From: a virus
Direction: 5' to 3' (one strand)
Virus record (IMG/VR): IMGVR_UViG_3300012582_000005
Coordinates: 64,001 to 128,000 of that record
DNA: 64,000 nt
Part shown: positions 1,499 through 53,468 of the stretch, in pieces
Layout: each line of letters opens with the position of its first letter
Position numbering within the stretch: the stretch's first letter is position 1
Position numbers and translations under genes: made by a program
Notes under the pieces: model-generated
What the model saw: only the letters and a program-made list of their open reading frames with translations
Database searches by the model: none
Told to the model about the DNA's origin: nothing

Positions 1499-1510
1499 TG
1501 ATTTTTGATG

Positions 1511-1562
1511 AAAATAAAATATAAAGGGAGTTAATTAATTAACTCCCTTTATATTTTATTTT
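1511..1562. terminator. Bidirectional terminator, 52-base perfect palindrome
   Basis: Arms 1511-1532 and 1541-1562 are exact reverse complements, with centre AATTAATT. The core is a GGGAGTT/AACTCCC stem flanked by A and T tracts on both strands. It lies between convergent genes and supplies the stop codon of the minus-strand gene (1556-1558). Confidence 0.85.
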
Positions 1563-2227
1563 ATGCCCAACTCCTCTAATAATTCATTATTTATTTCACT
1601 ATAATCCTTTAAAGTTTTTGTAGTAACTAATTCACCAGTAAGTGAGTCTAAAACAAAATATGTAGATGTTCTATCTTTTTTTACTACTTTGTAATAAATT
1701 AAATATTTACCATATGATTCTAAAAAGTAATTAATGTAATTCATTATAATATTAAAATTTTTATCATAAAAACACATATTATCAGGTGATGATGTAAATA
1801 TTGCATAAACTAAACTATCATCTTTTTCTATATTATCCAATATAATTTTAGTTACATTAGGTAATTCTAAGTATCTATTTAAATAAATATCTAAATATGC
1901 TAATCTATAATTGAAAATTTTCACTTTATTTATATTTGTAATATATACAACAAAGTTAACCATATTTATATTATTTAAAAATTCTTCAAAATTTGTATAT
2001 TTATTTTGTGCTATTTTAGCAGATTCTAAATTATATGCAGAAACTATATACTTATTATTATCATATTCATCATTATTAGTAATATTGTAGAATACATAAT
2101 CTTTAATAAGTTTAGGATTTGATTCTAATGTTTCTATAAATTTATCAATTTTTATAATATCTTCATCATCTTCTTCCTCTTCATCATCCCAATCCGAAAA
2201 ATCTTCATATAATTTTAAATATTTCAT
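1556..2227 (-). CDS. Hypothetical protein with leader-like N-terminus and acidic tract
   Basis: 223 residues, not recognised. It starts MKYLKLYEDF, like the leader class, but continues into an Asp/Glu run (residues about 12-23) without a clear (I/L)-x-E site near residue 12. The rest is Asn/Tyr/Ile-rich with no motif I can name. It lies 10 bases downstream of the amidoligase-like gene and is probably co-transcribed with it. A GATATAAATA sequence within the end of that gene could act as a late promoter. Confidence 0.6.
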   Translation of the reverse strand: MKYLKLYEDFSDWDDEEEEDDEDIIKIDKFIETLESNPKLIKDYVFYNITNNDEYDNNKYIVSAYNLESAKIAQNKYTNFEEFLNNINMVNFVVYITNINKVKIFNYRLAYLDIYLNRYLELPNVTKIILDNIEKDDSLVYAIFTSSPDNMCFYDKNFNIIMNYINYFLESYGKYLIYYKVVKKDRTSTYFVLDSLTGELVTTKTLKDYSEINNELLEELGIK

Positions 2228-8499: not shown

Positions 8500-9771
8500 C
8501 TATTCAAATTCATTTGATAAAATTTGTATTACATCATCTATTGTTTCTTCTTCTAAATCAGTTCTTTTTATTAAATCTTTTTTATCAGATGCTAAAATTT
8601 GTTTAGCTGTATCCAAACCAACTTTTCTAAATTCGTTTATAATCCATGCTTCAATTTCATCAGAAAATTCTTGTAAATCAACATCATCTTCGTCAATTGC
8701 GACAGTTTTTCTGAATATTTCAACAGTTTTACCTAATATTCTACTTGCTAATTTAATATTAACTCCTTTTCTACCAATTGCTAAAGGAACTTGATCGTTA
8801 TTTAAGAAAACAATTATTTTATTTTCTTCAATTTTTACATCGGAGACTTTAGCAGGAGAAAGAACGCGATGAATAAGTAAATCGAAATTTTCAGTATAGT
8901 TAATAATATCAATGTTCTCATTTCTCAATTCTTTTACTATAGTATTTATTCTACTTCCTTTTGAACCAACACAAGCACCAACTGGATCTACTCTATCATC
9001 ATATGATTCAACTAATATTTTAGCTTTTTCACCTGGTTCTCTAACAACATATTTAATGGAGATTAGTCCATCGCCAACTTCTGGAATTTCATTCTCCATT
9101 AAACGTTCTAAAAATAAAGAATTTGTTCTCGATAGAATAATTACAGGTTTACCTTTAAAAGTATCAATTTTATGAACCAATGCTTTAATTGTATCACCTT
9201 TTTTATATCTGTCTGCAAATATTTGTTCTTCTTTAGGTAAAATAAGTTCTTTACCAAGAGCATCATGAATTATAATACTTCTATTATTAGTAAAACCAAT
9301 TACTTCACCATGAATTATTTCACCTAGTAGCTCTTCGTATCTTTCGGTTAATAAGTGGTTGTCCCAATCCTTTATTTTTTGAAGAAGTGCTTGTTTTGCT
9401 ATAAGTACATTTCTTCTACCGAAATCATCAATTTTAATTTCTTCTGAGCACTGTTCGCCTATTTCAAAATCATCAGCAATCTTTATTGCTTCTGTATGAG
9501 AAATATGTTTGTTTTCATCGTAATCAAAACTGTCTTCTGCGAATTCATCATCGACAATTTCTCTATTTCTCCAAATCTCTAAATCACCCTTTTCTATATT
9601 AACAATTACATTAAAATTAGTATCATCACCATATTTCTTTTTAACTATGGTTTTAAATACATCTTCTATAATTCTAATTGTAGTAGGTCTATCTATATTC
9701 TTTGTTTTAGCAAATTCTGCAAAAGAGCTTACTAAAGTATTTTCTTCTTTATTTATTTTCATTTTCTTCAT
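8500..9771 (-). CDS. nusA: Transcription elongation/termination factor NusA
   Basis: 423 residues, close to the length of Bacteroidota NusA. The order is complete: N-terminal RNA-polymerase-binding domain (1 to about 130, 'IIEDVFKTIVKKKYG', 'GDLEIWRNREIV'), S1 domain ('LGEIIHGEVIGFTNNRSIII...LILPKEEQI'), then KH1/KH2 with 'SRTNSLFLERLMENEIPEV', 'VDPVGACVGSKGSRINTIV', 'ENIDIINY' and 'PLAIGRKGVNIKLASRI'. NusA binds RNA polymerase and controls pausing, termination and antitermination. A phage copy could retune host polymerase on phage templates. The start may instead be the fourth-codon ATG. It overlaps the upstream 75-residue gene by 23 bases. Confidence 0.95.
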   Translation of the reverse strand: MKKMKINKEENTLVSSFAEFAKTKNIDRPTTIRIIEDVFKTIVKKKYGDDTNFNVIVNIEKGDLEIWRNREIVDDEFAEDSFDYDENKHISHTEAIKIADDFEIGEQCSEEIKIDDFGRRNVLIAKQALLQKIKDWDNHLLTERYEELLGEIIHGEVIGFTNNRSIIIHDALGKELILPKEEQIFADRYKKGDTIKALVHKIDTFKGKPVIILSRTNSLFLERLMENEIPEVGDGLISIKYVVREPGEKAKILVESYDDRVDPVGACVGSKGSRINTIVKELRNENIDIINYTENFDLLIHRVLSPAKVSDVKIEENKIIVFLNNDQVPLAIGRKGVNIKLASRILGKTVEIFRKTVAIDEDDVDLQEFSDEIEAWIINEFRKVGLDTAKQILASDKKDLIKRTDLEEETIDDVIQILSNEFE

Positions 9772-18652: not shown

Positions 18653-19128
18653 ACCTTTAAAGATTTAATTTTTTCTTTTCTTGTTTTTTCTGGGTAATGG
18701 TAAAGTACTTTTTTCGGCTTTGGTGTTTTAAATAGTGTATCTAATCTTATAATATAATCCCATCCACTTTGGGCACTATAGTGTACATGTCTTTCATAAT
18801 TTATATCATTATTTCTACCAAATCTATACCATATAAAGATAAATCTTTTTTGCGCATGATATTTAATATTACCATTTTTAGTTACCTTTTTAAGTCTAAA
18901 TCCGAGCATATTGGGTAAATATTCATATGTAGTTCCATTAGTTCCCTTATGATGCTTATGAACATTTACGCACGCCCACGATGTCTCCACACTATCCGTA
19001 TAATAAGCATTTTTTGTTTTAGCTATTATAATAGAATTATCATAGCTAAAATATAACCACAAACCTAAAATTCTTATTTGTGGATAAAATCTTCCTTTTC
19101 TTACATCTTGCTTTACTCTATATTTCAT
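18649..19128 (-). CDS. Hypothetical protein
   Basis: 159 residues from ATG at 19128; a longer frame would use TTG. Rich in aromatic and basic residues ('GRFYPQIRILGLWLYFSYDNS', 'KRFIFIWYRFGRNN'). Not recognised. Its ATG overlaps the stop of the RNA ligase gene, giving a coupled RNA ligase - this gene - membrane protein unit. Confidence 0.65.
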   Translation of the reverse strand: MKYRVKQDVRKGRFYPQIRILGLWLYFSYDNSIIIAKTKNAYYTDSVETSWACVNVHKHHKGTNGTTYEYLPNMLGFRLKKVTKNGNIKYHAQKRFIFIWYRFGRNNDINYERHVHYSAQSGWDYIIRLDTLFKTPKPKKVLYHYPEKTRKEKIKSLKV

Positions 19129-19787
19129 AATTTTTCCCAAGGATTTACACCATCAATAGATTTATTAAATTCTTTTTTACTATGTCTCCAGTGATTTTGT
19201 GGTATAATAAACGTTTTTCTAACAAATTTGTTTAAATTATTACTAAAATCATTAATATTAAAACTGTCAGCTTTTCTAATAACAAATCCTTCAACATCAT
19301 CAGAAGAATTTTTTATGTAATTATCAAAATCTTTTAATATTTTATCTTTATCATAAATACCATAATAAAATTCTGGTACAGTAACCAAATTTAACTTATT
19401 TGCAATATTTTTAGTTTCTTCCCAACTTAAACACACATCACCATCCCATAAAGAAAACATATAAAAAAAATCCAATAAACTATTATAATTACAAGTATGT
19501 TTATAAAATAAATTTTCACCAACAATTCTTTGAGTTTCTGATATATTACCTCGAATTTTTAAAAGTCTTAATGTATCTATCCATCTACGGTCTTCCGTAT
19601 CCATATTCGATGATAATGATCTAGCATGAATATAATCGTTGTATATTGTTGTATTTTCACCATCCATTTTTATAGTTCCAACAACTACTTCATTTTCGAA
19701 ATGTGCATCAGATTTACACATTTTATCATCTGTAGTACAATTTTCTGAGTATGGAATGTGAAAACTTCTTGGGTATTTAATCTTCAT
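19125..19787 (-). CDS. RNA ligase family protein (short, Rnl2/Rnl5-like)
   Basis: 220 residues from ATG at 19787. Nucleotidyltransferase motif I is K40-M-D-G-E-N; further motifs are 'IVGENLFYKHTCNY', 'FYMFSLWDG' (III), 'VEGFVIRK' (IV) and 'NKFVRK' (V). It would seal RNA ends via ligase-adenylate, for example in repair of tRNA cut by host defences. A second, Rnl1-type ligase is at 52317. A host-type promoter precedes it, suggesting early expression. Confidence 0.85.
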   Translation of the reverse strand: MKIKYPRSFHIPYSENCTTDDKMCKSDAHFENEVVVGTIKMDGENTTIYNDYIHARSLSSNMDTEDRRWIDTLRLLKIRGNISETQRIVGENLFYKHTCNYNSLLDFFYMFSLWDGDVCLSWEETKNIANKLNLVTVPEFYYGIYDKDKILKDFDNYIKNSSDDVEGFVIRKADSFNINDFSNNLNKFVRKTFIIPQNHWRHSKKEFNKSIDGVNPWEKL

Positions 19788-19820
19788 AATAGTAAATATA
19801 CATAAAGATAATATAAAATG

Positions 19821-19851
19821 CAAATATACAAGATATTATTTTAAATCACAA
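19821..19851 (-). promoter_or_regulatory. Bacteroidota housekeeping-type promoter
   Basis: Minus strand: TTG (19849-19851), 20 bases, TATATTTG (19821-19828), 34 bases before the RNA ligase ATG. Confidence 0.75.
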
Positions 19852-21918: not shown

Positions 21919-22608
21919 ATGAAAAAAATAGAAAAAACTATGAATTTAGATAAAGACTTTGCACTATTTGCTAAATCTAAAGGTGTACCTTCCACCACAT
22001 TAGATAAATATAAAAAACTATTTCCACAAGCATCTTTAACACCTGCTATAGTAGAAGAGAGAAATTTAAATATTGCTATAATGGATGTCTTTTCGAGATT
22101 AATGATGGATAGAATTATTTTTTTAGGAACTGAAATTGATGATTATGTTGCAAATGTTATATCCGCACAATTTCTTTATTTAACATCTATAGATAAAACG
22201 GCTGATATTAAACTTTACATTAATAGCCCAGGTGGTTCTGTTTATGATGGTAATTCCATTCTCGATGTAATGGATTTAGTTGAAACTGATGTAGCAACTG
22301 TTTGTACAGGATTAGCAGCTTCTATGGCTGCTGTAATTTTAAGTCATGGTACAGAAGGAAAAAGATGTTCACTTAGTAGAAGTAGAGTTATGATACACCA
22401 ACCTCTTGGTGGAACTTGGGGACAAGCATCTGATATAGAAATTGAAGCTAAAGAAATTAAAAAAATTAAGAGAGAATTAGTACAAACATTAGCAGATAAC
22501 ACAAAACAACCATTTAAGAAGGTATGGAGAGATTGTGATAGAGATAAATGGTTAGATGCTAAAGAAGCATTAGGTTATGGATTGATTGATAAAATTCTAA
22601 GTAAATAA
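21919..22608 (+). CDS. clpP: ATP-dependent Clp protease proteolytic subunit ClpP
   Basis: 229 residues. Catalytic triad: S135 in 'GLAASMAAVIL', H160 in 'VMIHQPLGGTWGQASD', and an Asp in 'RDCDRDKWLDAKEAL'. 'LYINSPGGSVYDGNSILD' is also diagnostic. ClpP forms a barrel that degrades unfolded proteins fed by ClpX/ClpA. No Clp ATPase is in the window, so it may use the host's. With the phage tmRNA at 33570 it could degrade tagged products. It starts a run of overlapping genes (TAATG with the next). Confidence 0.95.
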   Translation: MKKIEKTMNLDKDFALFAKSKGVPSTTLDKYKKLFPQASLTPAIVEERNLNIAIMDVFSRLMMDRIIFLGTEIDDYVANVISAQFLYLTSIDKTADIKLYINSPGGSVYDGNSILDVMDLVETDVATVCTGLAASMAAVILSHGTEGKRCSLSRSRVMIHQPLGGTWGQASDIEIEAKEIKKIKRELVQTLADNTKQPFKKVWRDCDRDKWLDAKEALGYGLIDKILSK

Positions 22609-23940: not shown

Positions 23941-24216
23941 ATGGGAAAGCTAAAAATATACGAAGCGATTGTAAGAGGTGAGAAAAAACTATTATTTTGG
24001 TGTAAAGCTTGTTCATCAAATCATTCTGTAGATACAGATAAAATTGAATGGAATGGTGATAATTATACACCGACAATAAATGCAGATATTAAAATAATTT
24101 CTCATAAAAATATTAAATGTCATTCATTTATTAAAAATGGTCATATAATATATCTCGATGAATCAGAACACGAGTATAGAGGTAAAAAAATTGAATTGGA
24201 CGAATTTTATCATTAA
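23941..24216 (+). CDS. Small putative zinc-binding phage protein (DUF6527-like)
   Basis: 91 residues. 'LLFWCKACSSNHSVDTDKIEWNGDNYTPTINADI' followed by 'KCHSFIKNGHIIYLDESEHEYRGKKIEL' fits a widespread small phage family (C-x-x-C...H, W-x-[FW]-N-G, P-T, C-H-S-F, G-x-I...D...H...G), often mislabelled ammonia monooxygenase. The Cys/His set suggests one metal site. Role unknown. Stop/start overlap with the Nudix gene. Confidence 0.7.
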   Translation: MGKLKIYEAIVRGEKKLLFWCKACSSNHSVDTDKIEWNGDNYTPTINADIKIISHKNIKCHSFIKNGHIIYLDESEHEYRGKKIELDEFYH

Positions 24217-24878
24217 TGAAATTAACAGTAGATGCAGTAGTATTTGGTTATGTTGAAAAAGATTTGAAAATTCTTTTAATAAAAAGAAAATATGAACCTT
24301 TTCAAGATTCTTGGGCATTACCTGGAGGTTTTGTTTTAGAAGAAGAGTCTGTTGATGATGCAGTAGAAAGAGAATTAAAAGAAGAAGCAGGTATTGAAGA
24401 TATTTATTTAGAACAACTGTATACTTTTGGTGAAGTAAAAAGAGATCCAAGAGAAAGAATTGTGTCTGTTGCATATTATGGTTTAGTAAATCCTGATAAA
24501 CATCTATTACACGCAAAAACAGATGCATGTGACGCAAAATGGTTTTCAGTTAAGACTCTCCCATTGATAGCATTCGATCATATAAACATAATTGAAATTG
24601 CATATAGAAGACTGCAAAGTAAAGTATCATATCAACCAATAGGATTTGAGTTATTACCATCTAAATTTCCATTCTCTCAATTACAAAGTTTATATGAAAC
24701 TATCTTAGATATACCATTTGATAGAAGAAATTTTAGAAAGAAATTTCTAAAATTAAATATTATTGATCAATTGAGTGAGAAGCAAATGGATGTGCCGTAT
24801 AGAGCAGGTAGTCTATTTAAATTTAATAAAAAGAAATACGAAAATAAATTAGAGAACGGTTTTTATTTTGAAATATAA
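24216..24878 (+). CDS. Nudix protein with NrtR-like winged-helix C-terminus
   Basis: 220 residues. The Nudix box is intact, 'GGFVLEEESVDDAVERELKEEAGI' (about 36-59). The C-terminal 80 residues ('FPFSQLQSLYETILDIPFDRRNFRKKFLKL...YRAGSLFKFNKKKY') match the winged-helix of NrtR, the regulator that senses ADP-ribose and controls NAD genes. It lies just upstream of NadM-Nudix and NAMPT, so it may regulate or support NAD salvage, or hydrolyse ADP-ribose. Confidence 0.85.
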   Translation: MKLTVDAVVFGYVEKDLKILLIKRKYEPFQDSWALPGGFVLEEESVDDAVERELKEEAGIEDIYLEQLYTFGEVKRDPRERIVSVAYYGLVNPDKHLLHAKTDACDAKWFSVKTLPLIAFDHINIIEIAYRRLQSKVSYQPIGFELLPSKFPFSQLQSLYETILDIPFDRRNFRKKFLKLNIIDQLSEKQMDVPYRAGSLFKFNKKKYENKLENGFYFEI

Positions 24879-25546
24879 TGTTTGGATTTTTAAAAAAGAA
24901 AAAAGCTAATAGAGTTGGTATATTCAATGTACCTAAACTAAATTATACATCATGGAATAGTTTTGGAATCTTCAATGAATTAAAAGAAGATAGTGAAGAA
25001 ACACATAAAAAAATATTAGATGAATTCGAACTAATAAGTGATGATGATATTAAAATAATAAAAAGTTTAGGATTTAATAGAAACGTAGATGAATATTCAC
25101 CCAATATTTTAAATAAATTAAAATCTATTATAGATGATGGTGGTGTCTTAATTAAGAAATCCAGTATATTAAAAATTAGTAGAAGTTATAATATGACTTT
25201 TATGCAAGCAAATGAATATCGCGGAAAATTATCACCTACTAATATAAAAGATATAGTAAAAATTAAAAATAGTATTGATAAATGGTCATCAGATTTTAAA
25301 TACTATTCTAAAGTTACTCATAATCCACCACCAAATACATCATGGATAGAAATAGTAGAGGGTGACTATAATGTATGGCCAACAATAAAAGCTTATAAAA
25401 AAGAACCTATTCTTCATATTTTAGAAAAAGAAAATTCTGATAAAATAATTTTTGTATCGGTTGTAAGAAATGATATTTATGTTCCTTTAACTTATATTAA
25501 AAGTGAAAGGAAAAGTAAAATTGATGATGTATTAGAAGATAAATAA
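24878..25546 (+). CDS. Hypothetical protein
   Basis: 222 residues, starting MFGFLKKKKANRVGIFNVPK. Helical with basic and acidic stretches; a Trp-rich middle 'PPPNTSWIEIVEGDYNVWPT'. Not recognised. Its ATG overlaps the stop of the Nudix gene, and the next gene follows in 1 base, so it belongs to this operon. Confidence 0.6.
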   Translation: MFGFLKKKKANRVGIFNVPKLNYTSWNSFGIFNELKEDSEETHKKILDEFELISDDDIKIIKSLGFNRNVDEYSPNILNKLKSIIDDGGVLIKKSSILKISRSYNMTFMQANEYRGKLSPTNIKDIVKIKNSIDKWSSDFKYYSKVTHNPPPNTSWIEIVEGDYNVWPTIKAYKKEPILHILEKENSDKIIFVSVVRNDIYVPLTYIKSERKSKIDDVLEDK

Positions 25547-25547
25547 C

Positions 25548-25850
25548 ATGAAAGATACTTTACTTGAACTAATATCAATTGTAGAATCTTTAGCCATAAA
25601 AATTGATGATAGAGAATTTGCAATATTAAACAATGAATATTATCCACCTAAAATAGAATTTCATAGAATTGGCACACGTGGCGAATCCAATAGATTGATT
25701 GAATTGAAGACTAATTTATTAGCTCCACCTACCCGTGGTGAGAGAATTGATAATTTAAATAATGAATTCCAAGAAGAGAAAATTAGACTTTTAGAAGAAA
25801 AAGTTAAACTTTTAGAAGCTATTTTATTTAAAGATAATAACATTTTTTAA
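25548..25850 (+). CDS. Small hypothetical protein with coiled-coil C-terminus
   Basis: 100 residues. The last 35 ('NLNNEFQEEKIRLLEEKVKLLEAILF') have heptad Leu spacing typical of a short coiled coil. Last gene of the run that begins at clpP. Function unknown. Confidence 0.55.
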   Translation: MKDTLLELISIVESLAIKIDDREFAILNNEYYPPKIEFHRIGTRGESNRLIELKTNLLAPPTRGERIDNLNNEFQEEKIRLLEEKVKLLEAILFKDNNIF

Positions 25851-25856
25851 TAAAGC

Positions 25857-25887
25857 TTGCTTTTTCGTAAATAATTCCATAATTTTG
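25857..25887 (+). promoter_or_regulatory. Bacteroidota housekeeping-type promoter
   Basis: TTG (25857-25859), 20 bases, TAATTTTG (25880-25887). The next ATG is only 3 bases on, so the transcript may be leaderless. Confidence 0.7.
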
Positions 25888-25890
25888 TTT

Positions 25891-26238
25891 ATGGAAAAGC
25901 AAGAGTGTATAGACTTGGCTCTAAAAATTTTTAATGAAAGTGGTGAAAAATTCGAATTCAGAGAACCTATATACGAATATTCACATACTATCTTGTTTTA
26001 TTCTGCTAAGATAAACGTTTCTGCTAAAATAGAATTTCTTGATAAAAATGTACATATCACTCTCGAAAAACATGATAATGAAGAGGTGAACTTACATATT
26101 AGTTACGATGCTACATTTGGAACAAAAGTTTACTATTTTATCGAAATTATCAAAAAATACAGAAAGATTAATAAAATGTGTAAAGTATTGGTAAATAATG
26201 AGATACCAAGAAAATTTATCATTAAAACTTTATTGTAA
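25891..26238 (+). CDS. Hypothetical protein
   Basis: 115 residues from ATG at 25891 (MEKQECIDLALKIFNESGEKFEF). Beta-rich middle, basic C-terminus. Not recognised. A host-type promoter overlaps the start region, so expression is probably early and perhaps leaderless. Confidence 0.55.
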   Translation: MEKQECIDLALKIFNESGEKFEFREPIYEYSHTILFYSAKINVSAKIEFLDKNVHITLEKHDNEEVNLHISYDATFGTKVYYFIEIIKKYRKINKMCKVLVNNEIPRKFIIKTLL

Positions 26239-26288
26239 AAAATTTTAACTACTTATATGTGTAATAAATACATAAAGGGGTAAAACTT

Positions 26289-26300
26289 TTAATATATACT
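26289..26300 (+). promoter_or_regulatory. Late-promoter-like AT motif
   Basis: TTAATATATACT, 7 bases before the NadM-Nudix frame. The enzyme is not leader-bearing, so the motif is not exclusive to leader genes. Confidence 0.35.
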
Positions 26301-26307
26301 GTGTATA

Positions 26308-27294
26308 ATGTACACAAATGAAATAACACAAAATATGAAAACAGGAATAATAGTAGCTCGATTTCAAAATCATACCCTTCATGAAGGTCAAAGATTTCTT
26401 GTAGATACAGTAATAAAAAATCACAAAAGAGTTATTATTTTCTTGGGAGTAACGCCTGTTATGTCAAGAAAAAACGCATTGGATTATAAGAATAGAGAAA
26501 TGATGGTTAAATCTTTATATCCATCGATAGAAATTTACCCACTTTATGATCACAAATCTAATGAAGATTGGGTAATAAGTTTAGAAGGTATAATCAATGA
26601 ATTAATACCCGATAAAAATGTAGTTCTATATGGTAGTAGAGACTCGTGTATTAATACGTATTTAAGACATGGTGGTAAATATAAATCTATAATTATTCCA
26701 CAAAAAGAAAATCATAATGCCACAGAATTAAGAGAAATAACAGCAAATGAATATATCAATTCTGATGATTTTAGAAAAGGTATTATATATGCACAATACA
26801 ATAATTTTTACCCTACAGCGTTCGCTACAGTAGATGTTATTGCAACTAGATTTTTAGATGGTGAATTAGAAGTTCTTCTTGGTCAAAAATCATATGAAGT
26901 AGGTAAGAACTTATGGAGAATTCCTGGTGGATTTATAGATCCTACTGATGAATTTGGTAGAGATACTGCATCAAGAGAACTTTGTGAAGAAACTTGTATT
27001 AGTGCATCACCATCATTATTTAATATCATTGATCAAGTAAGAGTAAATGATTGGAGATATATTGGTACTGAACATAGTATCATGACTACTATTTATTCTG
27101 TACATATTGGTTCAGGATGGCATGATAAAGTAATTAATAGTCATGCTAAAGCAAGTGATGATTTAGCTAAAGTAAAATGGTTTAAATTTTCAGAACTCAA
27201 TTTAGAAGAAGGTGTAGTAAGAGAACATAGAAAGTGTCTTAACATATTCATGAATCATCCACATTTTCAATATATTCAAAAACAACAAGCATAA
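26308..27294 (+). CDS. nadM: NMN adenylyltransferase / Nudix hydrolase (NadM-Nudix)
   Basis: 328 residues. The N-terminal nucleotidyltransferase domain (about 10-165) has 'TGIIVARFQNHTLHEGQ' (the G-x-F-x-x-H-x-G-H region), 'FLGVTPVMSRKNALDYKNREMM' and 'HNATELREI'. The C-terminal Nudix domain (about 175-325) has 'WRIPGGFIDPTDEFGRDTASRELCEET'. Such fusions make NAD from NMN and ATP and hydrolyse ADP-ribose or related compounds. It lies 17 bases before NAMPT. The true start may be the second Met (MKTGIIVARF). Confidence 0.92.
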   Translation: MYTNEITQNMKTGIIVARFQNHTLHEGQRFLVDTVIKNHKRVIIFLGVTPVMSRKNALDYKNREMMVKSLYPSIEIYPLYDHKSNEDWVISLEGIINELIPDKNVVLYGSRDSCINTYLRHGGKYKSIIIPQKENHNATELREITANEYINSDDFRKGIIYAQYNNFYPTAFATVDVIATRFLDGELEVLLGQKSYEVGKNLWRIPGGFIDPTDEFGRDTASRELCEETCISASPSLFNIIDQVRVNDWRYIGTEHSIMTTIYSVHIGSGWHDKVINSHAKASDDLAKVKWFKFSELNLEEGVVREHRKCLNIFMNHPHFQYIQKQQA

Positions 27295-27311
27295 AAAATA
27301 AATTTAATATT

Positions 27312-28892
27312 ATGGAAACAAATACAGATACAATTACTTTAAATAGAGAAACTAGAAGACTATTACTAAGATTTTCTAATAAAGCCATTAATAATGTTAT
27401 GACAAAAGATGCTGTAATCAAAGCATTAGAACGTGCATTACAATCTATTGAGCCGAATTTAATTTTATTAACTGATGCATATAAATATTCACATCCGAAG
27501 TTTTATACACCAGGTTTAACTAAAATGATTTCGTATTTAGAATCTAGAGGTGGTAAATTTCAAGAGACTGTAATGTTTGGTATTCAATATATTTTGAAAA
27601 AATATTTAGTTGGTAGTGTTTTATCCGAATATATGGTAGAAGAGGCTGAAGAGAAGTTGAATGGTGAAAATGGTGTTTTTGGTAAAGACGGTTCTTTCTC
27701 TAAAGAACAATGGTTAAAAATGATTAAAAAGCATGATGGGAAATTCCCAATAAGAATAAAATCTGTACCTGAAGGTGCTGTAGTACCTGTTAAAAATGTT
27801 CTTGCTTTAATTGAAAGTACTGATGATGAATTCCCTTGGGTAACAGGATTTATTGAATCATTATTTCTTGAAATTTGGTATCCAATCACTGTAGCAACAT
27901 TATCAAGAGAAGTTAAAAAAGTTGTAGTTGAATATCTCATCAAGACTGGTGCTAATCCAGCAATGATTCCAACAATGGTACAATTTATTTTAAATGATTT
28001 TGGATTCAGGGGCGCATCAAGTGTTGAATCAGCAAGTATAGGCGGGGCATCACATTTAGTCAATTTCATGGGATCTGACAACGTTGCTGGTTCTGATATG
28101 CTAATGAAATTTTATAATACTAAAACAATGTGGGGAAAATCTATTGATGCTACAGAACATTCTATTTGTACAATGGAGGGAGAAGATGGAGAGCTTGAGG
28201 TATTTAAACGTGTATTACTATCTAAACCAAAGGGATTAGTTGCGTGTGTTTCTGATTCATTTGACATTTTAAGGGCATGTATGCAATATTGGGGAACAGA
28301 CTTACGTGATATTATTTTAGCAAGAGAAGGTACTTTAGTAATTAGACCTGATAGTGGTGATCCTGTAATGACTCTAAAAGCAGTATTTAAAATTCTATTT
28401 GATAAATTTGGATATACTGTAAATGAGAAAGGCTTTAAAGTATTACCACCACAAGTAAGAGTTATTCAAGGTGACGGCGTTAATTATGATTCTATCAAAG
28501 CTATGTACCAAGCATTAATGGAAAATGGTATAGCATCAGAAAATTTAGTTCTTGGTATGGGTGGAAAGCTTTTACAAGCAGGAATTGATAGAGATTTACA
28601 AAACTTTGCAATTAAAACATGTTTTGCAATTATTAATGGTAAAGAAGTTGACATTGTTAAATCACCAAAAGAAATTGATAAAGATGGTAACATCAAAGTT
28701 AGTTTCAAAAAATCTAAAAAAGGTATGATGAAATTAGTCAAAACTTCTGATGGTGGTTATTACACAATTACATCTGCTGAAGAAGGTTATAATGAAGCTA
28801 AATGTGAATTGGTAACTATTTTTGAAAATGGTGTTTTATTAGTAGATGATAGTATTGAAACAATTCGTCAAAGAGCCGAATTAGTATATTAA
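27312..28892 (+). CDS. nadV: Nicotinamide phosphoribosyltransferase (NAMPT)
   Basis: 526 residues, slightly longer than typical. 'LTDAYKYSHPKFYTPGLTKMISYLESRGG', 'VEYLIKTGANPAMIPTMVQFILNDFGFRGASSVESASIGGASHLVNFMGSDNVAG', 'EHSIC', 'VSDSFDILRA', 'VIRPDSGDP' and 'GMGGKLLQAGIDRDLQNFAIKTC' are the family blocks. It converts nicotinamide and PRPP to NMN, which NadM then turns into NAD. This pair is the two-step NAD-restoring pathway reported in phages that counters NAD-depleting defences. About 50 N-terminal residues precede the usual core start. Confidence 0.95.
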   Translation: METNTDTITLNRETRRLLLRFSNKAINNVMTKDAVIKALERALQSIEPNLILLTDAYKYSHPKFYTPGLTKMISYLESRGGKFQETVMFGIQYILKKYLVGSVLSEYMVEEAEEKLNGENGVFGKDGSFSKEQWLKMIKKHDGKFPIRIKSVPEGAVVPVKNVLALIESTDDEFPWVTGFIESLFLEIWYPITVATLSREVKKVVVEYLIKTGANPAMIPTMVQFILNDFGFRGASSVESASIGGASHLVNFMGSDNVAGSDMLMKFYNTKTMWGKSIDATEHSICTMEGEDGELEVFKRVLLSKPKGLVACVSDSFDILRACMQYWGTDLRDIILAREGTLVIRPDSGDPVMTLKAVFKILFDKFGYTVNEKGFKVLPPQVRVIQGDGVNYDSIKAMYQALMENGIASENLVLGMGGKLLQAGIDRDLQNFAIKTCFAIINGKEVDIVKSPKEIDKDGNIKVSFKKSKKGMMKLVKTSDGGYYTITSAEEGYNEAKCELVTIFENGVLLVDDSIETIRQRAELVY

Positions 28893-33312: not shown

Positions 33313-33387
33313 CACTCTGTACGTCAATTTGGTTAGACTGTTGGGATTCTAACCCCGACAATGCAGGTTCGAGTCCTGTCAGGGTGA
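33313..33387 (+). tRNA. tRNA-Arg (TCT), possibly with 8-base anticodon loop
   Basis: Acceptor CACTCTG/CAGGGTG, D-stem GTC/GAC, T-stem GCAGG/CCTGT with loop TTCGAGT, discriminator A followed by CA. The best anticodon stem is GTTGGG/CCCGAC (one G-T pair), leaving loop ATTCTAAC (8 bases); a 7-base loop needs a mismatched stem. The anticodon is read as TCT, which serves AGA, a codon common in AT-rich genomes. Confidence 0.8.
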
Positions 33388-33484
33388 CAATATTAAATAG
33401 TATGTAGAAAAGTGGGAAAAAATGACAAATTTTTACAAATATATAAATAACATTTTAAACAAATAATCGTTTATTATAATACAT

Positions 33485-33557
33485 CGCAGGATGGAGAAGA
33501 TGGTATCTCGCAAGGCTCATAACCTTGAGGTCGCAAGTTCGAGTCTTGCTCCTGCTA
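33485..33557 (+). tRNA. tRNA-Met (CAT), initiator-like features
   Basis: Acceptor CGCAGGA/TCCTGCT with an unpaired first base (C-T), D-arm GAGA/TCTC, perfect anticodon stem CAAGG/CCTTG with loop CTCATAA, perfect T-stem GCAAG/CTTGC with loop TTCGAGT. The unpaired first base and the 'TGGAG...GGTA.CTCG' D-arm recall initiator tRNA, but the three G-C pairs of an initiator anticodon stem are missing. Confidence 0.88.
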
Positions 33558-33569
33558 CAATAAATACAT

Positions 33570-33926
33570 GGGGGTGAAAACGTATAGATTGGCTGTACTC
33601 GTGTTAAATTTGCAAGTCGTGTAATTGTTATGAACACGTTAATTCAACTAACAAAAAGTTAAATGACAACGTTAATTCGTTTGAGCAATCAATTCTTAAT
33701 GAGTTGTTCGCTCCAGTTGAAATGGCAGTAGCTGCTTAATACCATTTCAAAACTGTCGTAAAAAGGCACAAAAAACAGTTTGGCTCTTCTGTAAAAAGAA
33801 CATAGATAATTTACCAGTTGGCTCACTATCCAATTTATTATCGAAAACTCTAAAGTGAGATAAACTTGTAGTAGATTTAATGTTAGCAGAACAAGACCTC
33901 GATGTCGTAATCGAGCATCTCCACCA
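33570..33926 (+). ncRNA. ssrA: Transfer-messenger RNA (tmRNA)
   Basis: A 357-base RNA without a proper ORF. The 5' end GGGGGTG (33570-33576) pairs fully, with G-T wobbles, with CATCTCC (33916-33922), followed by an encoded ACCA end. A T-arm CTCGA/TCGAG precedes this end. An internal frame ends in ...EMAVAA-TAA (stop 33737-33739), matching the small, Ala-Ala-terminated proteolysis tags of tmRNAs. Its upstream codons read NELFAPV and before that SFEQSIL. Pseudoknot-like pairings probably fill the rest. It frees stalled ribosomes and tags products for ClpXP-type proteases. It lies in tandem with two tRNAs. Confidence 0.85.
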
Positions 33927-33978
33927 TATTCCCATCATTTCCTGAGAAATCAAAGTGGTGGATGTAATTTTAAATTAA

Positions 33979-34052
33979 TGGGGGTGGCTCGCCTTAACGG
34001 TTCTTGCCGACAAGAAGCATCCGATATTTATATCATACAGGGGGCGAAACCA
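33979..34052 (+). ncRNA. Structured RNA candidate, three-way junction
   Basis: GGT..TCGCC (33983-33993) can pair with GGCGA..ACC (34043-34051), enclosing two hairpins: CGG TTCTTG-CCGA-CAAGAA (GCAT) CCG at 33998-34023 and GATAT-TT-ATATC at 34023-34034. The GC-rich ends stand out from the AT-rich surroundings. It begins ATGGGGGTGG, echoing the tmRNA 5' end (ATGGGGGTGA). It lies after the tmRNA and before the lipoprotein promoter. Class unknown. Confidence 0.5.
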
Positions 34053-34093
34053 TTACTTTTATTATACTTCCAAAATAAAACCTCATTAAATAT

Positions 34094-34124
34094 TTGATAG
34101 TGTGGATTTAATTTCCTATATTTG
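34094..34124 (+). promoter_or_regulatory. Bacteroidota housekeeping-type promoter
   Basis: TTG (34094-34096), 20 bases, TATATTTG (34117-34124), 18 bases before the lipoprotein ATG. Confidence 0.75.
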
Positions 34125-34142
34125 TAGAAATAAATCTACGAT

Positions 34143-37384: not shown

Positions 37385-39285
37385 TTCATTACAGATTTTT
37401 TTATAACCTTCTTCACAATTTTTTTCTTATCTTTAACTTTTTTATCAACAATTTCTTTTAAAATATATTTGTTCATAAGATTATCTTTATTTCCATAACT
37501 AATTAATTTAGCACCCATTTTATTAACTAATTTAGCAATCGACTTAGTATCTAAAACATCAACATCAATACATTTTATATTAATGATATTCTTAACTTTT
37601 TTAAATAGGTTATTTGTATTATCTGTATTAAAAATAACTTTTAACACACCCATAGTAATACCACTACAAAAAATGTAATCCATTGCCTGCGATTTCAAAG
37701 TTTTCAATGCATTCTTATCCATCATACTGATTATATCATCGATACAAATAATTTTATCTAAAAATTGTATTGCACAAACATGCGCAAAATTTTGTTTTTT
37801 GATATATTTTATTATTTTATTCATTTTAACATTTTTGTTATCACTTTTATTTATACCTAAAAGTGGATAATCTAATGTATCATAACGATATGAATAAAGA
37901 GAAGGAATATCTCGTATAAAACTATATTTTTGTGTATTTCTCTCTTTGATTCTTCTTTCTAAAATATTTACAAGTTTATCTATATTTTGTCCTTCTGATA
38001 AAATATCAGTAAGCAATTTATAAAAATTATTAGGTTTTAATTGTCTTACGCTTAAATTTTGTAAGATATATTTATCAATTCTTTTCCGATAAATTTTATC
38101 TATTAAATCTGTATGTTGTTGAATAATTGTGTTTATTGGTACAAATTTAGAAAAATCAATTTCAGACAAACAATTAATATTATCCTTAACAAACTTTGAA
38201 AGTTGTCCATTATATTTAACTAAATTATATTTTTTATTTTTCAAAAAGAAAACATCATCTTTAAATTTAATATTATCAACTTTAACTTTGAAATGTTTAG
38301 AGAGAATACCCAATCGTTTTAATATAGAATCATATCCACGATTTTCATTATAGCCACCATTAACGGCTGTCCAATATTCCACACTTTTACCATCTTTGTT
38401 TCCTAAGTATAACATCAATTCACCATTAACTAAATCTTCTTTAAGATACTTCATAGTATCCATATAAGGCTTCTTTAAAGAACACCAATTCAACAACGGT
38501 ATATTAGCTTTAATATTAGGATTACTCAAAGTAGTCTTACCATTATTTAATATAAAGCTATCACTACTCTGTCTTTCTTTACACCACCAACTTTTAGAAT
38601 GAATATAATCTTTTACAGTTGAAAGAAATCTATCATCATAACAATAAATTCTATCAACATAAGTTTGATTTTTTACCTTACCTATAATAGAATTATGCCA
38701 TACGATAGCTCTTGAAAGAAGTTTTTCATTTTTGTCGATACAGACAAGCATAGAAACATTCTTATTTTTAGTATAAACTGATAAAAAAGTTCCACAAAGA
38801 TTGTGTCTCATGCAGCTACCATTTAAACTACTATCATTTATATCTTTAGCATAATTAATAAAATTATACCATTTCTTAATATCATCACCTTTAACTAATT
38901 CGAATCTAAATTTAGATTCGGATGATCTAAATTTATTCGAAAAATCTTCAATATCGGAATCAGTAAATTTAATATTCTTAGCTTCTAATACTGAACGAAT
39001 TACCGCACCTACACGGACATTTGTCCTACTTTTTATTATCCATTTCTCATTATCTGATATTTCTTTACCCGTTCTAAAGTCAACTTCTTTATTAGTACTT
39101 AAATAACTAACCATTCCATCTTCTGTAGAAATATCTATATAACTAAACTTTATATCTAAAGCTTCTCTCTTTTTATGTAAATTAATTAAATTCTTGGAAA
39201 TGAAATGATTAATCTTAGATAATTTATCAAGCATTTTATCACTTAATATAATAGCTTTTGTAGATTTTTGTTTTGTATTAGGCAT
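37369..39285 (-). CDS. Large SCM/DRIY-family paralogue C, no leader
   Basis: 638 residues from ATG at 39285 (MPNTKQKSTKAIILSDKML); upstream only a TTG is available. Shared core: 'FSYIDISTEDGMVSYLSTNKE', 'GSCMRHNLC', 'SRAIVWHNS', 'TYVDRIYCYD', 'WWCKERQSS', 'NNGKTTLSNPNI' and 'KPYMDTMKYL'. The C-terminus is long, Ile/Lys-rich and unique, ending in a Lys/Val-rich basic tail. No capsid-targeting leader, and a host-type promoter instead of the late motif, so this member may act early from inside the cell. Confidence 0.8.
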   Translation of the reverse strand: MPNTKQKSTKAIILSDKMLDKLSKINHFISKNLINLHKKREALDIKFSYIDISTEDGMVSYLSTNKEVDFRTGKEISDNEKWIIKSRTNVRVGAVIRSVLEAKNIKFTDSDIEDFSNKFRSSESKFRFELVKGDDIKKWYNFINYAKDINDSSLNGSCMRHNLCGTFLSVYTKNKNVSMLVCIDKNEKLLSRAIVWHNSIIGKVKNQTYVDRIYCYDDRFLSTVKDYIHSKSWWCKERQSSDSFILNNGKTTLSNPNIKANIPLLNWCSLKKPYMDTMKYLKEDLVNGELMLYLGNKDGKSVEYWTAVNGGYNENRGYDSILKRLGILSKHFKVKVDNIKFKDDVFFLKNKKYNLVKYNGQLSKFVKDNINCLSEIDFSKFVPINTIIQQHTDLIDKIYRKRIDKYILQNLSVRQLKPNNFYKLLTDILSEGQNIDKLVNILERRIKERNTQKYSFIRDIPSLYSYRYDTLDYPLLGINKSDNKNVKMNKIIKYIKKQNFAHVCAIQFLDKIICIDDIISMMDKNALKTLKSQAMDYIFCSGITMGVLKVIFNTDNTNNLFKKVKNIINIKCIDVDVLDTKSIAKLVNKMGAKLISYGNKDNLMNKYILKEIVDKKVKDKKKIVKKVIKKSVMKKVLK

Positions 39286-45530: not shown

Positions 45531-47690
45531 TTATTCATCGTCGTCATCCTCTTCTTCCTCTTCATCATCAATTACAGAAGATTTTTTGAATTTATAAGTA
45601 TCAATAAGATTAAATAATACCGTCTTATCAAATGAATCTACACTTCTATCACTTTCTTTTATTTTCTTAACAAAATCATCATAAGATTTAATACCATTAA
45701 TTCTGATAACAAAGTATCCTTGTCCACTACTAGCGATACTGCTTCTATTTAAGAAAATTGTAGTATCACCATCAGCTTGTATTGTAAATGTCCACACATT
45801 ACCCTTAACATCTCTATAAGAATCTTTAAGAGAAACACCTGGTTTACTATCAGAATTAATATTTACAAGTTCGAAGGCTTTATCAAAATTTTTCTCATTA
45901 TATAATGGTTCACTATCCTTTTTAGAAAATCCAACTTTATCTTTAATAGAATCATATAATTCATCCCACGATTTTACAGCACCATGAAATAAAAGTTTAT
46001 ATTGTCCTTTAGTATTAGAGCTACTTATCAAGAATACGCTTACAATATTTCCATCAATTTCAATATTATAAATAGTACCATCTTTATCTTCAAATCGCTC
46101 CTTAAATATTAGAGAACCTTCTTCACCAACTTCTGCTTTTTTAAGATCAAAAACTTTAACTATATTATCAATAGTAAGTGGTTTACCAAACATATTCATT
46201 TGAGTACCACTATTATCAAATTTACCAACAACTGTACCAGCTTTAGTACTAACAATAGCACCAAGTTGTTTTTTAAACTTTTCTATAGTGCTATCCACTA
46301 TATTGGATACAACTTCATATGGTTTGCTACTATCAAATACTAAAGCTATATCAAAATATTTTTTATCTCCGCTAACAGCACTACCATTTCTTACTAATTC
46401 AACGGCTTTAATTCTACTATCATCATTAATAATATCTTGAATCTTAATGAATGAAACAGACGGCGGAACTATTAAAGTCACTGTACGCTTAGTCTCTTTA
46501 ATAACGGCATTTTGAGTTTTCTTCTTTTTCTTTTTTCTTTTTAGTGACACAACATCTTTAATTCTTTCCCATAATTCATTGAAATTTTTTGGAATATTTG
46601 ACTTCAATGATTCATGATATACAATATCTGGCATACCATTCTGCAATTCTTTTGCAATAGATACAGTATCACTATTAATAGTGATCATCCAAATTGTACC
46701 TTCTTTATCCGCAAAATATTCAGATTTATCATCAGTATCACCATGACTTTGAATTTTAGTTAATTCAAAGAAAGATGGAACATTATCAACATTAAAAGTT
46801 AAATCAGCACCATCGACAGGAATACCATCATCATCTTTTTTGGTTGTATTTTGCCAAGTATTATTATGTTGATAAGACGTGCTTTTATTTCTACTATTAT
46901 AATGTGTGTGACCACTGCCATATTCATCATAATTATTACCATAAGTAGTAATTTTCTTTTTCTCTTTTTCTTCGTCTCTTGGTGTACGTTTTGTTGGCAA
47001 TTTCTCCCAATTAATTTTAGCAGATGCATGTGCAATTTGTTCAATTAATTTGATATTTACATATTCATCCCTAGTATGTTCACCCCAAACTGCTGCTGAA
47101 ATATTTGTACATTCTGGAATTATACCCATGAATACGGCTGTGTCGGTATAAACCCCTGTATCATCAGGACGATATTGTAATCCATTTTTACCATAATCTT
47201 TCGAAAGAGCTTCGGCAAAATCTATACTTGCACAAATACTACCTCTTTGTTTTGTAATAATTGAACCCGATTTTTTCCTGTCGAATGCAATAGCTCTCTT
47301 AAACTTTCTAAAATAGTCAGGCTCATTTTTTAAAGCCCATCTTGAACCAATACAACCAGTTTCTTCACCCACAAAGAAGTAATATGTACCAGGAACATTT
47401 TGTTCAATTAGATACATCAAAATACATACTCCTGCTTTATTGTCACCACCTAATATTGTTGTGCCATCAGTTCTAATGATATCACCTTGTATGATATGAT
47501 TAATTTTCATACGAGTAGATACTGTATCCAAGTGGCAAGTAAATAATGTTTCACTTTCGCCAATAACGATTCTATAATTACCAACTTCATCCTTTTCCAA
47601 CCCATTTGGTAAAAGGTGAGTAATAGTTTCCTCATATCCGTGTGGAATAGTCCATTGGGTAAATTTCAAGAAAGTTTTTTTGAAATCCAT
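45531..47690 (-). CDS. M20/M28-type zinc aminopeptidase-like protein with three C-terminal repeats
   Basis: 719 residues. The peptidase domain (1 to about 235) has metal and catalytic motifs 'FTCHLDTV' (H53, D55), 'ILGGDNKAGV' (D83), 'FVGEETGCIGS' (E109/E110), 'AFDRK' and a late 'GEHTRDEY'. After a His/Asn-rich linker (about 240-285) come three related units of about 85 residues, starting near 298, 508 and 610, each with 'F-x-[DE]-x-[DKE]-G-x-[IV]-[WY]-x-[MIF]-x-I' and ending 'K-x-[WYF]-x-[DE]-[LF]'. The C-terminal end is acidic. Repeats may bind substrate or a structure. A host-type promoter precedes it. Confidence 0.8.
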   Translation of the reverse strand: MDFKKTFLKFTQWTIPHGYEETITHLLPNGLEKDEVGNYRIVIGESETLFTCHLDTVSTRMKINHIIQGDIIRTDGTTILGGDNKAGVCILMYLIEQNVPGTYYFFVGEETGCIGSRWALKNEPDYFRKFKRAIAFDRKKSGSIITKQRGSICASIDFAEALSKDYGKNGLQYRPDDTGVYTDTAVFMGIIPECTNISAAVWGEHTRDEYVNIKLIEQIAHASAKINWEKLPTKRTPRDEEKEKKKITTYGNNYDEYGSGHTHYNSRNKSTSYQHNNTWQNTTKKDDDGIPVDGADLTFNVDNVPSFFELTKIQSHGDTDDKSEYFADKEGTIWMITINSDTVSIAKELQNGMPDIVYHESLKSNIPKNFNELWERIKDVVSLKRKKKKKKTQNAVIKETKRTVTLIVPPSVSFIKIQDIINDDSRIKAVELVRNGSAVSGDKKYFDIALVFDSSKPYEVVSNIVDSTIEKFKKQLGAIVSTKAGTVVGKFDNSGTQMNMFGKPLTIDNIVKVFDLKKAEVGEEGSLIFKERFEDKDGTIYNIEIDGNIVSVFLISSSNTKGQYKLLFHGAVKSWDELYDSIKDKVGFSKKDSEPLYNEKNFDKAFELVNINSDSKPGVSLKDSYRDVKGNVWTFTIQADGDTTIFLNRSSIASSGQGYFVIRINGIKSYDDFVKKIKESDRSVDSFDKTVLFNLIDTYKFKKSSVIDDEEEEEDDDDE

Positions 47691-52316: not shown

Positions 52317-53468
52317 TTATTTTAGTTTACCTGTTTCAACAAATTCTTTAGCTTTACCTAAATAATAAGTCTTCTTTTTCAAATATCGAGAAACTATATT
52401 AAATGGCTCTTCTTGGTTATTTATCACTGCCATATACATTCCAAAATATTTAGTTTTTTTATTAGCTATAGAAAATGCCTTAACATCCTTTTTATAAAAT
52501 GTTTCAAATTCTTCTACTTTAGAATTTATGTCTTTAAGTGTCTCCATTAAAAAAACATTAACTCTTTTTATGACAGAATCTATTAAAGCTCTTACTTCCA
52601 CATCCTTTTCATCTATTTGACCTAATACATCATCTATCTGTTCATCTAATACTTTTTCAATTAGAAAATCAGGTCTATGTATATAATCAGTTAATAGATG
52701 ATGTCTATCGCAATACCATTTACTTTTATACTTTACTAAATCACCCCCACATTCTATTACGACACCCTCTATATCTTCTGATACATCAACAAATGCTAAT
52801 ATTTCATCCCAAGTAGTATATGCCTCTACTTTTGGTGTTTTTACATCATTTAATAATTCACCTAAAGTATTTAAAGGTAAATAAAAGCCATTTGTGTTAT
52901 CTCTCAATCGTATTAAAATCAATTCAGTTTGTTCATATTTTAGTACGACTCTATTAAATGGTGATACTAATTCAAACACGGCAACTAAATTATTAATCAA
53001 TGTGTAATCAACTACTGCTTTTATATTAGGATTAGTATCATATATTTCTTGCGCCATCAAAGATTGTGTGTTATCTAATACCGACATTTTAGATTTAGCC
53101 AATATTTTACCGTTTGGTAACTGTATGAAACTTATAACAGAACCATCTTCTTTATTAGTAACATTATCAATTTTTAAATCTTTAACCAATTCAAATTGTG
53201 TTTCGGCAACTTGATTTAAATTGAAAAATTTATGCAATAATCTAAAAGACTTATAAAAAGTTCCATCTAAATTGAATACATATACCAAACCTCTCATTTC
53301 ATACGCGTTATTTTCTACGAAGTCATTATAAGAAGCAAGTCTATAATTGAAAATAGAAATTTTATATCCATCAACATATTGAACAGATTCGTAGAAAGTT
53401 AATGAGCCAGTTCTATTAACTAAATCAACAGCTTCTTCGTAAGATGGTATATGAAATTTTTCTATCAT
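52317..53468 (-). CDS. rnlA: T4 Rnl1-type RNA ligase
   Basis: 383 residues, near T4 Rnl1 (374). 'YKISIFNYRLASYNDF...YEMRGLVYVFNLDGTFYKSFRLLHKFFNLNQ' is the Rnl1 N-terminus. Adenylation motif 'NKEDGSVISF', then 'VAVFELVSPFNRVVLKY', 'IEGVVIE' (IV) and 'VKYKSKWY' (V), and a helical C-terminal domain. T4 Rnl1 reseals host tRNA cleaved by anticodon nucleases. A kinase/phosphatase partner (Pnkp) is not in the window. Confidence 0.92.
   Translation of the reverse strand: MIEKFHIPSYEEAVDLVNRTGSLTFYESVQYVDGYKISIFNYRLASYNDFVENNAYEMRGLVYVFNLDGTFYKSFRLLHKFFNLNQVAETQFELVKDLKIDNVTNKEDGSVISFIQLPNGKILAKSKMSVLDNTQSLMAQEIYDTNPNIKAVVDYTLINNLVAVFELVSPFNRVVLKYEQTELILIRLRDNTNGFYLPLNTLGELLNDVKTPKVEAYTTWDEILAFVDVSEDIEGVVIECGGDLVKYKSKWYCDRHHLLTDYIHRPDFLIEKVLDEQIDDVLGQIDEKDVEVRALIDSVIKRVNVFLMETLKDINSKVEEFETFYKKDVKAFSIANKKTKYFGMYMAVINNQEEPFNIVSRYLKKKTYYLGKAKEFVETGKLK

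What the first reader, a model, noticed from the sequence alone, without database searches (positions are those of the whole stretch)
33570..33926. Phage tmRNA together with phage ClpP and several peptidases
A tmRNA with an encoded CCA end and a tag ending ...EMAVAA lies in the same genome segment as ClpP (21919), two M20-like peptidases (45531, 47813), an M16 peptidase (60996) and GrpE. Inference: the phage carries its own ribosome rescue and protein-recycling route. The tag frame is longer and different from usual Bacteroidota tags, so it may direct products to the phage ClpP.
Basis: partly seen in the sequence, partly recalled or inferred. Interest (0 to 1): 0.75.

Follow-up and report, generated by a model that had tools for sequence, protein, structure and literature searches.

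The report
Megaphage tmRNA with SmpB and ClpXP
This 636-kb bacterial virus carries a real gene for tmRNA, an RNA that frees stuck ribosomes and tags their unfinished proteins, and elsewhere in its genome it also carries the tmRNA's helper protein and a protease set that could destroy tagged proteins; the pairing of tag and protease is plausible but unproven.

Summary
Window 33570-33926 is a complete one-piece tmRNA (Rfam RF00023, 65.2 bits against a cut-off of 47, E 3.7e-23). It has a G3:U70 alanine signal, an encoded CCA and a 24-residue tag, DNVNSFEQSILNELFAPVEMAVAA. ARAGORN misses it, probably because its T-loop is non-canonical.

The window is 100% identical to part of LR756504.1, a published 636-kb Mahaphage. 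That genome also encodes full-length SmpB, ClpX, a class I Clp ATPase with a ClpP-docking loop, and three ClpP-family proteins, one of them in the window. The M20-like, M16 and GrpE genes have no demonstrated link to it.

The last inference, that the tag feeds the phage ClpP, is open. Four of the six ClpX residues known to read ssrA tags are changed in the phage ClpX. The AVAA end should also suit host Clp proteases.

Lak phages carry tmRNA, SmpB and ClpP too. The 735-kb relative has an intron-split tmRNA with a tag ending VLA, no ClpP, and a Clp ATPase without the docking loop. Phage tmRNA and SmpB were already reported in huge phages. The protease set in the same genome and the altered ClpX were not found in the literature searched.

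The parts
33570..33926 (+). tmRNA (ssrA) gene, one-piece form, 357 nt
   Evidence: RF00023 65.2 bits, E 3.7e-23, model 1-374; ARAGORN negative
33570..33576 (+). 5' strand of acceptor stem GGGGGUG, with G3 of the G3:U70 alanine identity pair
   Evidence: cmscan alignment shows all seven pairs as standard; sequence
33665..33739 (+). tag reading frame, resume codon GAC to TAA: DNVNSFEQSILNELFAPVEMAVAA (24 aa)
   Evidence: frame set by alignment of GAC-AAC to the model's GCA-AAC; translation; Lak tmRNAs also resume at GAC
33898..33915 (+). T arm CTCGA-TGTCGTAA-TCGAG with a non-canonical 8-nt loop in place of TTCGANT
   Evidence: sequence; alignment with six other phage tmRNAs, which keep the usual loop; fold
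33916..33922 (+). 3' strand of acceptor stem CAUCUCC (U70 pairs with G3)
33923..33926 (+). discriminator A and encoded CCA
   Evidence: sequence
21919..22608 (+). ClpP-family serine protease (229 aa), candidate end-point protease of the route
   Evidence: PF00574 231.7 bits; PRK00277 253.1 against cut-off 249; head-maturation model NF045542 97.6, below its cut-off of 120; PDB ClpP alignment with Ser/His/Asp conserved
33485..33558 (+). tRNA-Met (CAT) directly upstream of the tmRNA; neighbour, probably the same small-RNA cluster
33313..33388 (+). tRNA with an 8-nt anticodon loop (ATTCTAAC), neighbour of the tmRNA
   Evidence: ARAGORN 'tcta'; RF00005 43.4 bits

Best explanation
The gene makes a working phage tmRNA. 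Charged with alanine through its G3:U70 acceptor and bound by the phage's own SmpB (or the host's), it enters ribosomes stalled on broken mRNA, takes over as message at GAC 33665, adds A-DNVNSFEQSILNELFAPVEMAVAA and frees the ribosome at the TAA. This keeps ribosomes available during a long infection in which mRNA is cut by phage or host nucleases. The Ala-Ala end marks the product for Clp proteases, most likely the host ClpXP/ClpAP and/or the phage's class I Clp ATPase with phage ClpP. Shown here: the RNA structure and tag frame, and the presence of SmpB, ClpX, the Clp ATPase and the ClpPs. Inferred: charging, tagging, degradation, which protease acts, and the benefit to the phage.
For: Full-length RF00023 match at 65.2 bits. 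G3:U70, encoded CCA, and a tag frame in register with the model's resume site ending AVAA, with chance 4.5e-4 for an Ala-Ala end at the fixed frame. Phage SmpB 174.3 bits against a cut-off of 130, covering profile 14-152 of 156, with the GKK(x)Y(D/N)K(R/K) tail motif kept and aligned to the other Mahaphage SmpBs. SmpB is present in all Mahaphage genomes tested: 634, 636, 642 and 735 kb and 15 Lak phages. tmRNAs above cut-off in Lak A1, B1 and C1. The 735-kb tmRNA and its intronless relative L122 keep the same 33-codon tag frame over 8 codon differences (3 of them synonymous), and ARAGORN calls that frame independently in L122.
Against: No expression, charging or tagged-protein data. The T-loop and D-loop are non-canonical, which might weaken EF-Tu or SmpB binding. 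The parts are not in one operon: tmRNA at 280.5 kb, SmpB at 540 kb, ClpX at 38 kb, ClpPs at 146, 292 and 371 kb of LR756504. Two Mahaphages with SmpB (634 and 642 kb) gave no convincing tmRNA, and LR756500 has a tmRNA without SmpB, so the pair is not obligatory.
Confidence: 0.78

Rival explanations
1. Matched phage pair: the long tag is read specifically by the phage's own ClpX or class I Clp ATPase working with phage ClpP, so that tagged products go to a phage-run recycling route that is partly separate from the host's.
For: A complete Clp set lies in the same genome. The phage ClpX has V154T, T199M, R228K and H230Q at residues that read ssrA in E. coli (PMC7652416), as expected if its tag preference had shifted. 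Class I ATPases of the 636- and 642-kb phages carry a VGF docking loop, while that of the 735-kb phage, which has no ClpP, has none and its tag ends VLA. A precedent for a matched tag and protease is Mesoplasma florum tmRNA with Lon (PMC9097571, PMC10873288).
Against: The same substitutions may simply mean that the phage ClpX no longer reads ssrA-type tags; in human ClpX, leucines at 199 and 230 go with no ssrA degradation (PMC7652416). The AVAA end keeps the Ala-Ala that host ClpX needs. The tag/ClpP correlation rests on very few lineages. The genes are unlinked.
Confidence: 0.25
2. Rescue only: the phage needs the ribosome release, the tag is read by host proteases or ignored, and the phage ClpX/ClpP serve unrelated jobs such as turnover of phage or host regulators.
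For: The 735-kb phage has tmRNA and SmpB but no ClpP, and its tag does not end in Ala-Ala. The 642-kb phage has three ClpPs but no detected tmRNA. ClpX in the 636-kb phage is altered at ssrA-reading residues.
Against: The 636-kb and Lak tags keep the Ala-Ala-COOH degron, which would be pointless if the tag were ignored.
Confidence: 0.35
3. Decoy or relic: the tmRNA is a non-functional copy, or one that ties up SmpB or interferes with host tmRNA, as shown for the tRNA-like stub of phage DS6A.
For: Non-canonical T-loop and D-loop. A decoy tmRNA-like RNA is known from mycobacteriophage DS6A (PMC4131195).
Against: Full length, all seven acceptor pairs, intact tag frame with stop, encoded CCA, and its own SmpB in the same genome.
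Confidence: 0.08
4. The ClpP in the window is a prohead (head maturation) protease and has nothing to do with tagging.
For: Its best PHROG is 'head maturation protease' (phrog_94, 143 bits).
Against: It fails the ClpP-related head-maturation cut-off (97.6 against 120) and passes ClpP subfamily cut-offs. Its best solved relatives are ATP-dependent ClpPs. All five Mahaphages tested have a separate T4 gp21-like S77 candidate, though those of the 636-, 642- and 735-kb phages score 23-25 bits, below the cut-off of 27.
Confidence: 0.15

Closest known systems
tmRNAs and SmpB reported in huge phages (Al-Shayeb et al. 2020, PMC7162821)
   Same: Same clade and the same genome set; LR756504.1 contains the window at 100% identity. 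That paper already lists tmRNAs and SmpB among huge-phage genes.
   Different: Those tmRNAs were called with ARAGORN, which misses this one, the Lak ones and the intron-split 735-kb one. The paper's main text does not mention ClpP; ClpX was not searched for in it.
Other phage tmRNAs (mycobacteriophages Bxz1/Wildcat, Bacillus phage G, Melnitz; PMC4131195, PMC9004378)
   Same: Phage-borne ssrA; 402 of 18,146 phage genomes had one in the 2021 survey (PMC9004378).
   Different: The Melnitz gene is two-piece; here the gene is one-piece, with a 24-aa tag and a SmpB and Clp set in the same genome.
Bacterial ssrA-SmpB-ClpXP trans-translation
   Same: Same parts list and the same Ala-Ala tag end.
   Different: Tag 24 aa against the commonest 10 aa (PMC11915505), odd T-loop, ClpX without the N-terminal zinc-binding part and with altered ssrA-reading residues.
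Mesoplasma florum tmRNA tag with its Lon (PMC9097571, PMC10873288)
   Same: Precedent for a tag matched to its own protease.
   Different: Protease is Lon, in a bacterium; here any match is only a hypothesis.
tmRNA genes with a T-loop group I intron (PMC11915505)
   Same: The 735-kb phage and L112 tmRNAs are broken in the T-loop region by group I introns.
   Different: These are in phage or viral contigs; the window's own tmRNA has no intron.

Membership tests
tmRNA (RF00023) | Covariance-model score above gathering threshold over the full length | tested here: met
   65.2 against 47 bits, model 1-374
tmRNA (RF00023) | Alanine-type acceptor with G3:U70 and 3' CCA | tested here: met
   GGGGGUG/CAUCUCC plus ACCA
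tmRNA (RF00023) | Canonical T-loop (TTCGANT) and D-loop GG (usual, but not required by the covariance model) | tested here: not met
   Loop TGTCGTAA and D region AAACGTATAGAT; six other phage tmRNAs aligned keep the usual T-loop
tmRNA (RF00023) | Tag frame from the resume codon to a stop, with a hydrophobic end | tested here: met
   24 codons, AVAA end
tmRNA (RF00023) | Alanylation and tagging in cells | not testable with these tools
   needs bench work
SmpB | NCBIfam equivalog score and near-full-length match | tested here: met
   NF003843 174.3 against 130; TIGR00086 168.7 against 119.1; LR756504 540096-540530
SmpB | C-terminal tail that enters the mRNA channel | tested here: inconclusive
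   Tail present (GKKQYNKKESIKAKDIKRDLDRNL) and similar to other Mahaphage SmpBs; somewhat short, function untested
ClpX | Equivalog score | tested here: met
   NF003745 450.3 against 359; TIGR00382 411.1 against 370.75
ClpX | N-terminal zinc-binding domain | tested here: not met
   Match starts at profile position 40 of 418
ClpX | ssrA-reading residues Y153, V154, T199, V202, R228, H230 (E. coli) | tested here: not met
   Y153 and V202 kept; V154T, T199M, R228K, H230Q (PMC7652416)
ClpX | IGF-type ClpP-docking loop | tested here: met
   KVGF aligned to the IGF loop
ClpP (window 21919-22608) | ClpP family match and Ser/His/Asp triad | tested here: met
   PF00574 231.7 bits; GLAASMA, MIHQP and RDCDRD aligned to PDB ClpPs
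ClpP (window 21919-22608) | Strict ClpP equivalog cut-offs (TIGR00493, NF011091) | tested here: not met
   237.0 against 308.6 and 304.5 against 361; subfamily cut-offs NF001368 and NF009205 are met
Phage head maturation protease, ClpP-related (NF045542) | Curated cut-off | tested here: not met
   97.6 against 120

The most novel reading that the evidence does not exclude
The Mahaphage has a self-contained, partly orthogonal tagging-and-destruction line: its own tmRNA writes a long phage tag, its own SmpB delivers it, and its own re-tuned ClpX or Clp ATPase with phage ClpP reads it, separating phage recycling from host quality control. The sister 735-kb lineage has dropped the protease side, so there tagging serves rescue alone.
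Probability: 0.22. Interest if true: 0.78.

Novelty: new variant of a known kind. Interest (0 to 1): 0.52.

Why it matters
It makes a testable case that some of the largest phages carry not just a ribosome-rescue RNA but every part from tagging to proteolysis. It also shows that the standard annotation tool misses tmRNA genes in this clade (this phage, Lak, 735 kb), so phage trans-translation is under-counted. If the tag and the phage unfoldase are matched, it gives a natural orthogonal degron system and a direct test of how tag and protease co-evolve.

Tried and rejected
(1) Finding close relatives of the window tag by its end (pattern for EMAVAA*): nine hits, none a tmRNA. (2) SmpB relatives in viral contigs: only two contigs of one sample, both 100% identical; in genome contigs only 41-50% identical bacterial SmpBs, so host origin is unresolved. 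(3) tmRNA in the 642-kb phage by Rfam and by pattern: nothing convincing; same for the 634-kb phage by Rfam. (4) Head-maturation reading of ClpP: considered and judged unlikely. (5) Stop-codon reassignment as a reason for stalling: ORFs end in TAA/TAG/TGA and coverage hardly improves under recoding. (7) Exact splice sites of the 735-kb tmRNA intron could not be fixed by the usual U/G rule. (8) Comparison with host Bacteroidota tmRNA tags was not made with the searches available.

Full report
What the sequence is. The window is 100% identical over all 64,000 bases to positions 250,433-314,432 (reverse strand) of LR756504.1. That record is a 636,363-base phage with no annotated features; its length matches the 636-kb genome of the 2020 huge-phage study. 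The study's genomes over 634 kb are predicted to replicate in Bacteroidetes and fall in its Mahaphage clade (PMC7162821). I therefore studied the whole phage, not only the window.

The observation. Rfam's tmRNA model matches 33570-33926 on the + strand over its full length, 65.2 bits against a gathering score of 47, E 3.7e-23. It is the only match in G000, the 288-kb virus record that holds the window. All seven acceptor pairs are standard, including G3:U70, the alanine identity pair (established knowledge), and CCA is encoded. The model's resume codon (GCA-AAC) aligns to GAC-AAC; from there the frame is open for 24 codons and ends AVAA-TAA. A frame of 8-35 codons from that point is common in shuffles (48%), but one ending in Ala-Ala occurs in only 0.045%. 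ARAGORN, the tool used by the 2020 study, does not report the gene. A likely reason is the T-loop, TGTCGTAA in place of TTCGANT; six other phage tmRNAs keep the usual form. The D region is also odd (AAACGTATAGAT). Whether these two changes compensate each other is unknown.

Partners in the same phage genome. SmpB: 540,096-540,530, 170.8 bits to Pfam and 174.3 against a cut-off of 130 in NCBIfam. ClpX: 37,587-38,744, above both ClpX equivalog cut-offs. Class I Clp ATPase: 534,497-536,443, 648 aa with two AAA modules and a VGF loop where ClpA/ClpC dock on ClpP (loop assignment by eye). ClpP family: the window's 21919-22608; 370,660-371,439; and a divergent third at 146,134-146,688. The parts are not clustered.

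Is the ClpP a head protease? PHROGs names it so. But it passes two ClpP subfamily cut-offs, fails the head-maturation cut-off, aligns to solved ClpPs with Ser, His and Asp conserved, and every Mahaphage tested has a separate S77 (T4 gp21-like) candidate (the three largest only at 23-25 bits against a cut-off of 27). It falls short of the strict ClpP equivalog cut-offs. I call it a ClpP-family protease, function not shown.

Can the phage ClpX read the tag? In E. coli ClpX, six residues (Y153, V154, T199, V202, R228, H230) make the ssrA contacts, and changes at several of them greatly weaken recognition (PMC7652416). Aligned to solved ClpX sequences, the phage protein keeps Y153 and V202 but has V154T, T199M, R228K and H230Q, with two residues missing before the RKH site; it also lacks the zinc-binding N-terminus. 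Either it has shifted preference, perhaps to the phage tag, or it no longer handles ssrA tags at all. The tag itself keeps the Ala-Ala end needed by ordinary ClpX.

Relatives. Lak A1, B1 and C1 carry RF00023 tmRNAs above cut-off (47-54 bits); the A1 and B1 tags read DDEIDFRMAA and DDEIEFRMAA, also resuming at GAC. Fifteen Lak records and the 634-, 642- and 735-kb phages carry SmpB. The 735-kb phage has a tmRNA candidate (21 bits alone) broken in the T-loop region by a group I intron (96 bits). Its 33-aa tag ends ...VEDLVLA, and the uninterrupted relative L122 (75.6 bits) has ...VEDLILA, called independently by ARAGORN. Eight codons differ between the two tags, three of them synonymous; this is consistent with a translated frame but too few to prove selection. 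The 735-kb phage has no ClpP and its class I ATPase lacks the docking loop, while the 642-kb ATPase has one together with three ClpPs. I found no tmRNA in the 642- or 634-kb phages. LR756500 (462 kb) has a tmRNA tagged GNNAEMRMAA and no SmpB. So SmpB is the steady part, and tmRNA and ClpP vary. The pattern 'ClpP present, docking loop present, tag ends AA' is suggestive but rests on very few lineages.

What is known. Phage tmRNAs are known (402 of 18,146 genomes, PMC9004378), as are tmRNA and SmpB in huge phages (PMC7162821) and T-loop introns in tmRNA genes (PMC11915505). A full-text search for papers holding phage, tmRNA, ClpX, ClpP and SmpB returned none whose title or abstract describes a phage with the whole set. 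I did not test the tag against host tags.

Mechanism and verdict. Most likely this is a working tmRNA served by phage SmpB that frees ribosomes stalled on cut mRNA and adds an Ala-Ala degron. Two RNA ligases in the window fit a phage that faces RNA cleavage, by inference only. That the gene is a phage tmRNA: about 0.9. That it performs trans-translation in infection: about 0.78. That its tag is read specifically by phage Clp enzymes: about 0.25. The M20-like, M16 and GrpE genes are real or probable but have no demonstrated tie to it.

Noticed in passing
33313-33388 (+): tRNA with an 8-nt anticodon loop ATTCTAAC; ARAGORN reads a four-base anticodon UCUA. It could be a +1 frameshift or amber (UAG) suppressor, or an odd Arg-UCU tRNA. 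The genome uses TAG as an ordinary stop in about a tenth of long ORFs.
   Followed up: partly
LR756504.1 136122-136197, 402360-402435, 461088-461164 (minus strand): Three related tRNA-like genes for which ARAGORN prints a two-base anticodon (tt, tt, at), suggesting shortened anticodon loops.
   Followed up: no
33927-34142: Non-coding stretch just downstream of the tmRNA holding a G+C-rich block (33980-34060) in a 26% G+C genome; folds at -50 kcal/mol over 216 nt (no shuffle control), no Rfam family, no second copy in the phage.
   Followed up: partly
L033 about 1250-1865 (minus strand), LR756503.1 near 718388: tmRNA of the 735-kb phage interrupted in the T-loop region by a group I intron; acceptor GGGCTCG/CGGGTCC with G3:U70; ARAGORN blind to it.
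   Followed up: partly
L112 12139-12679 (minus strand): Second viral tmRNA with a group I intron at the T-loop (72.4 bits); sister L127 is uninterrupted and its tag ends AAVVGA.
   Followed up: partly
24216-28892: NAD-metabolism cluster: NrtR-type NUDIX regulator, cytidyltransferase/NUDIX protein and nicotinamide phosphoribosyltransferase; may rebuild NAD+ against NAD-depleting defences (inference).
   Followed up: no
19125-19823 and 52317-53468 (minus strand): Two RNA ligases (PF09414; PF09511, T4 Rnl1-like), possible tRNA repair against anticodon nucleases.
   Followed up: no
8500-9771 (minus strand): Phage-borne NusA-like protein with NusA_N and KH domains.
   Followed up: no
45531-47690 (minus strand): Peptidase-like gene with diverged DNA-level copies of part of it at three other places in LR756504 (near 206.8, 239.4 and 565.9 kb).
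   Followed up: no
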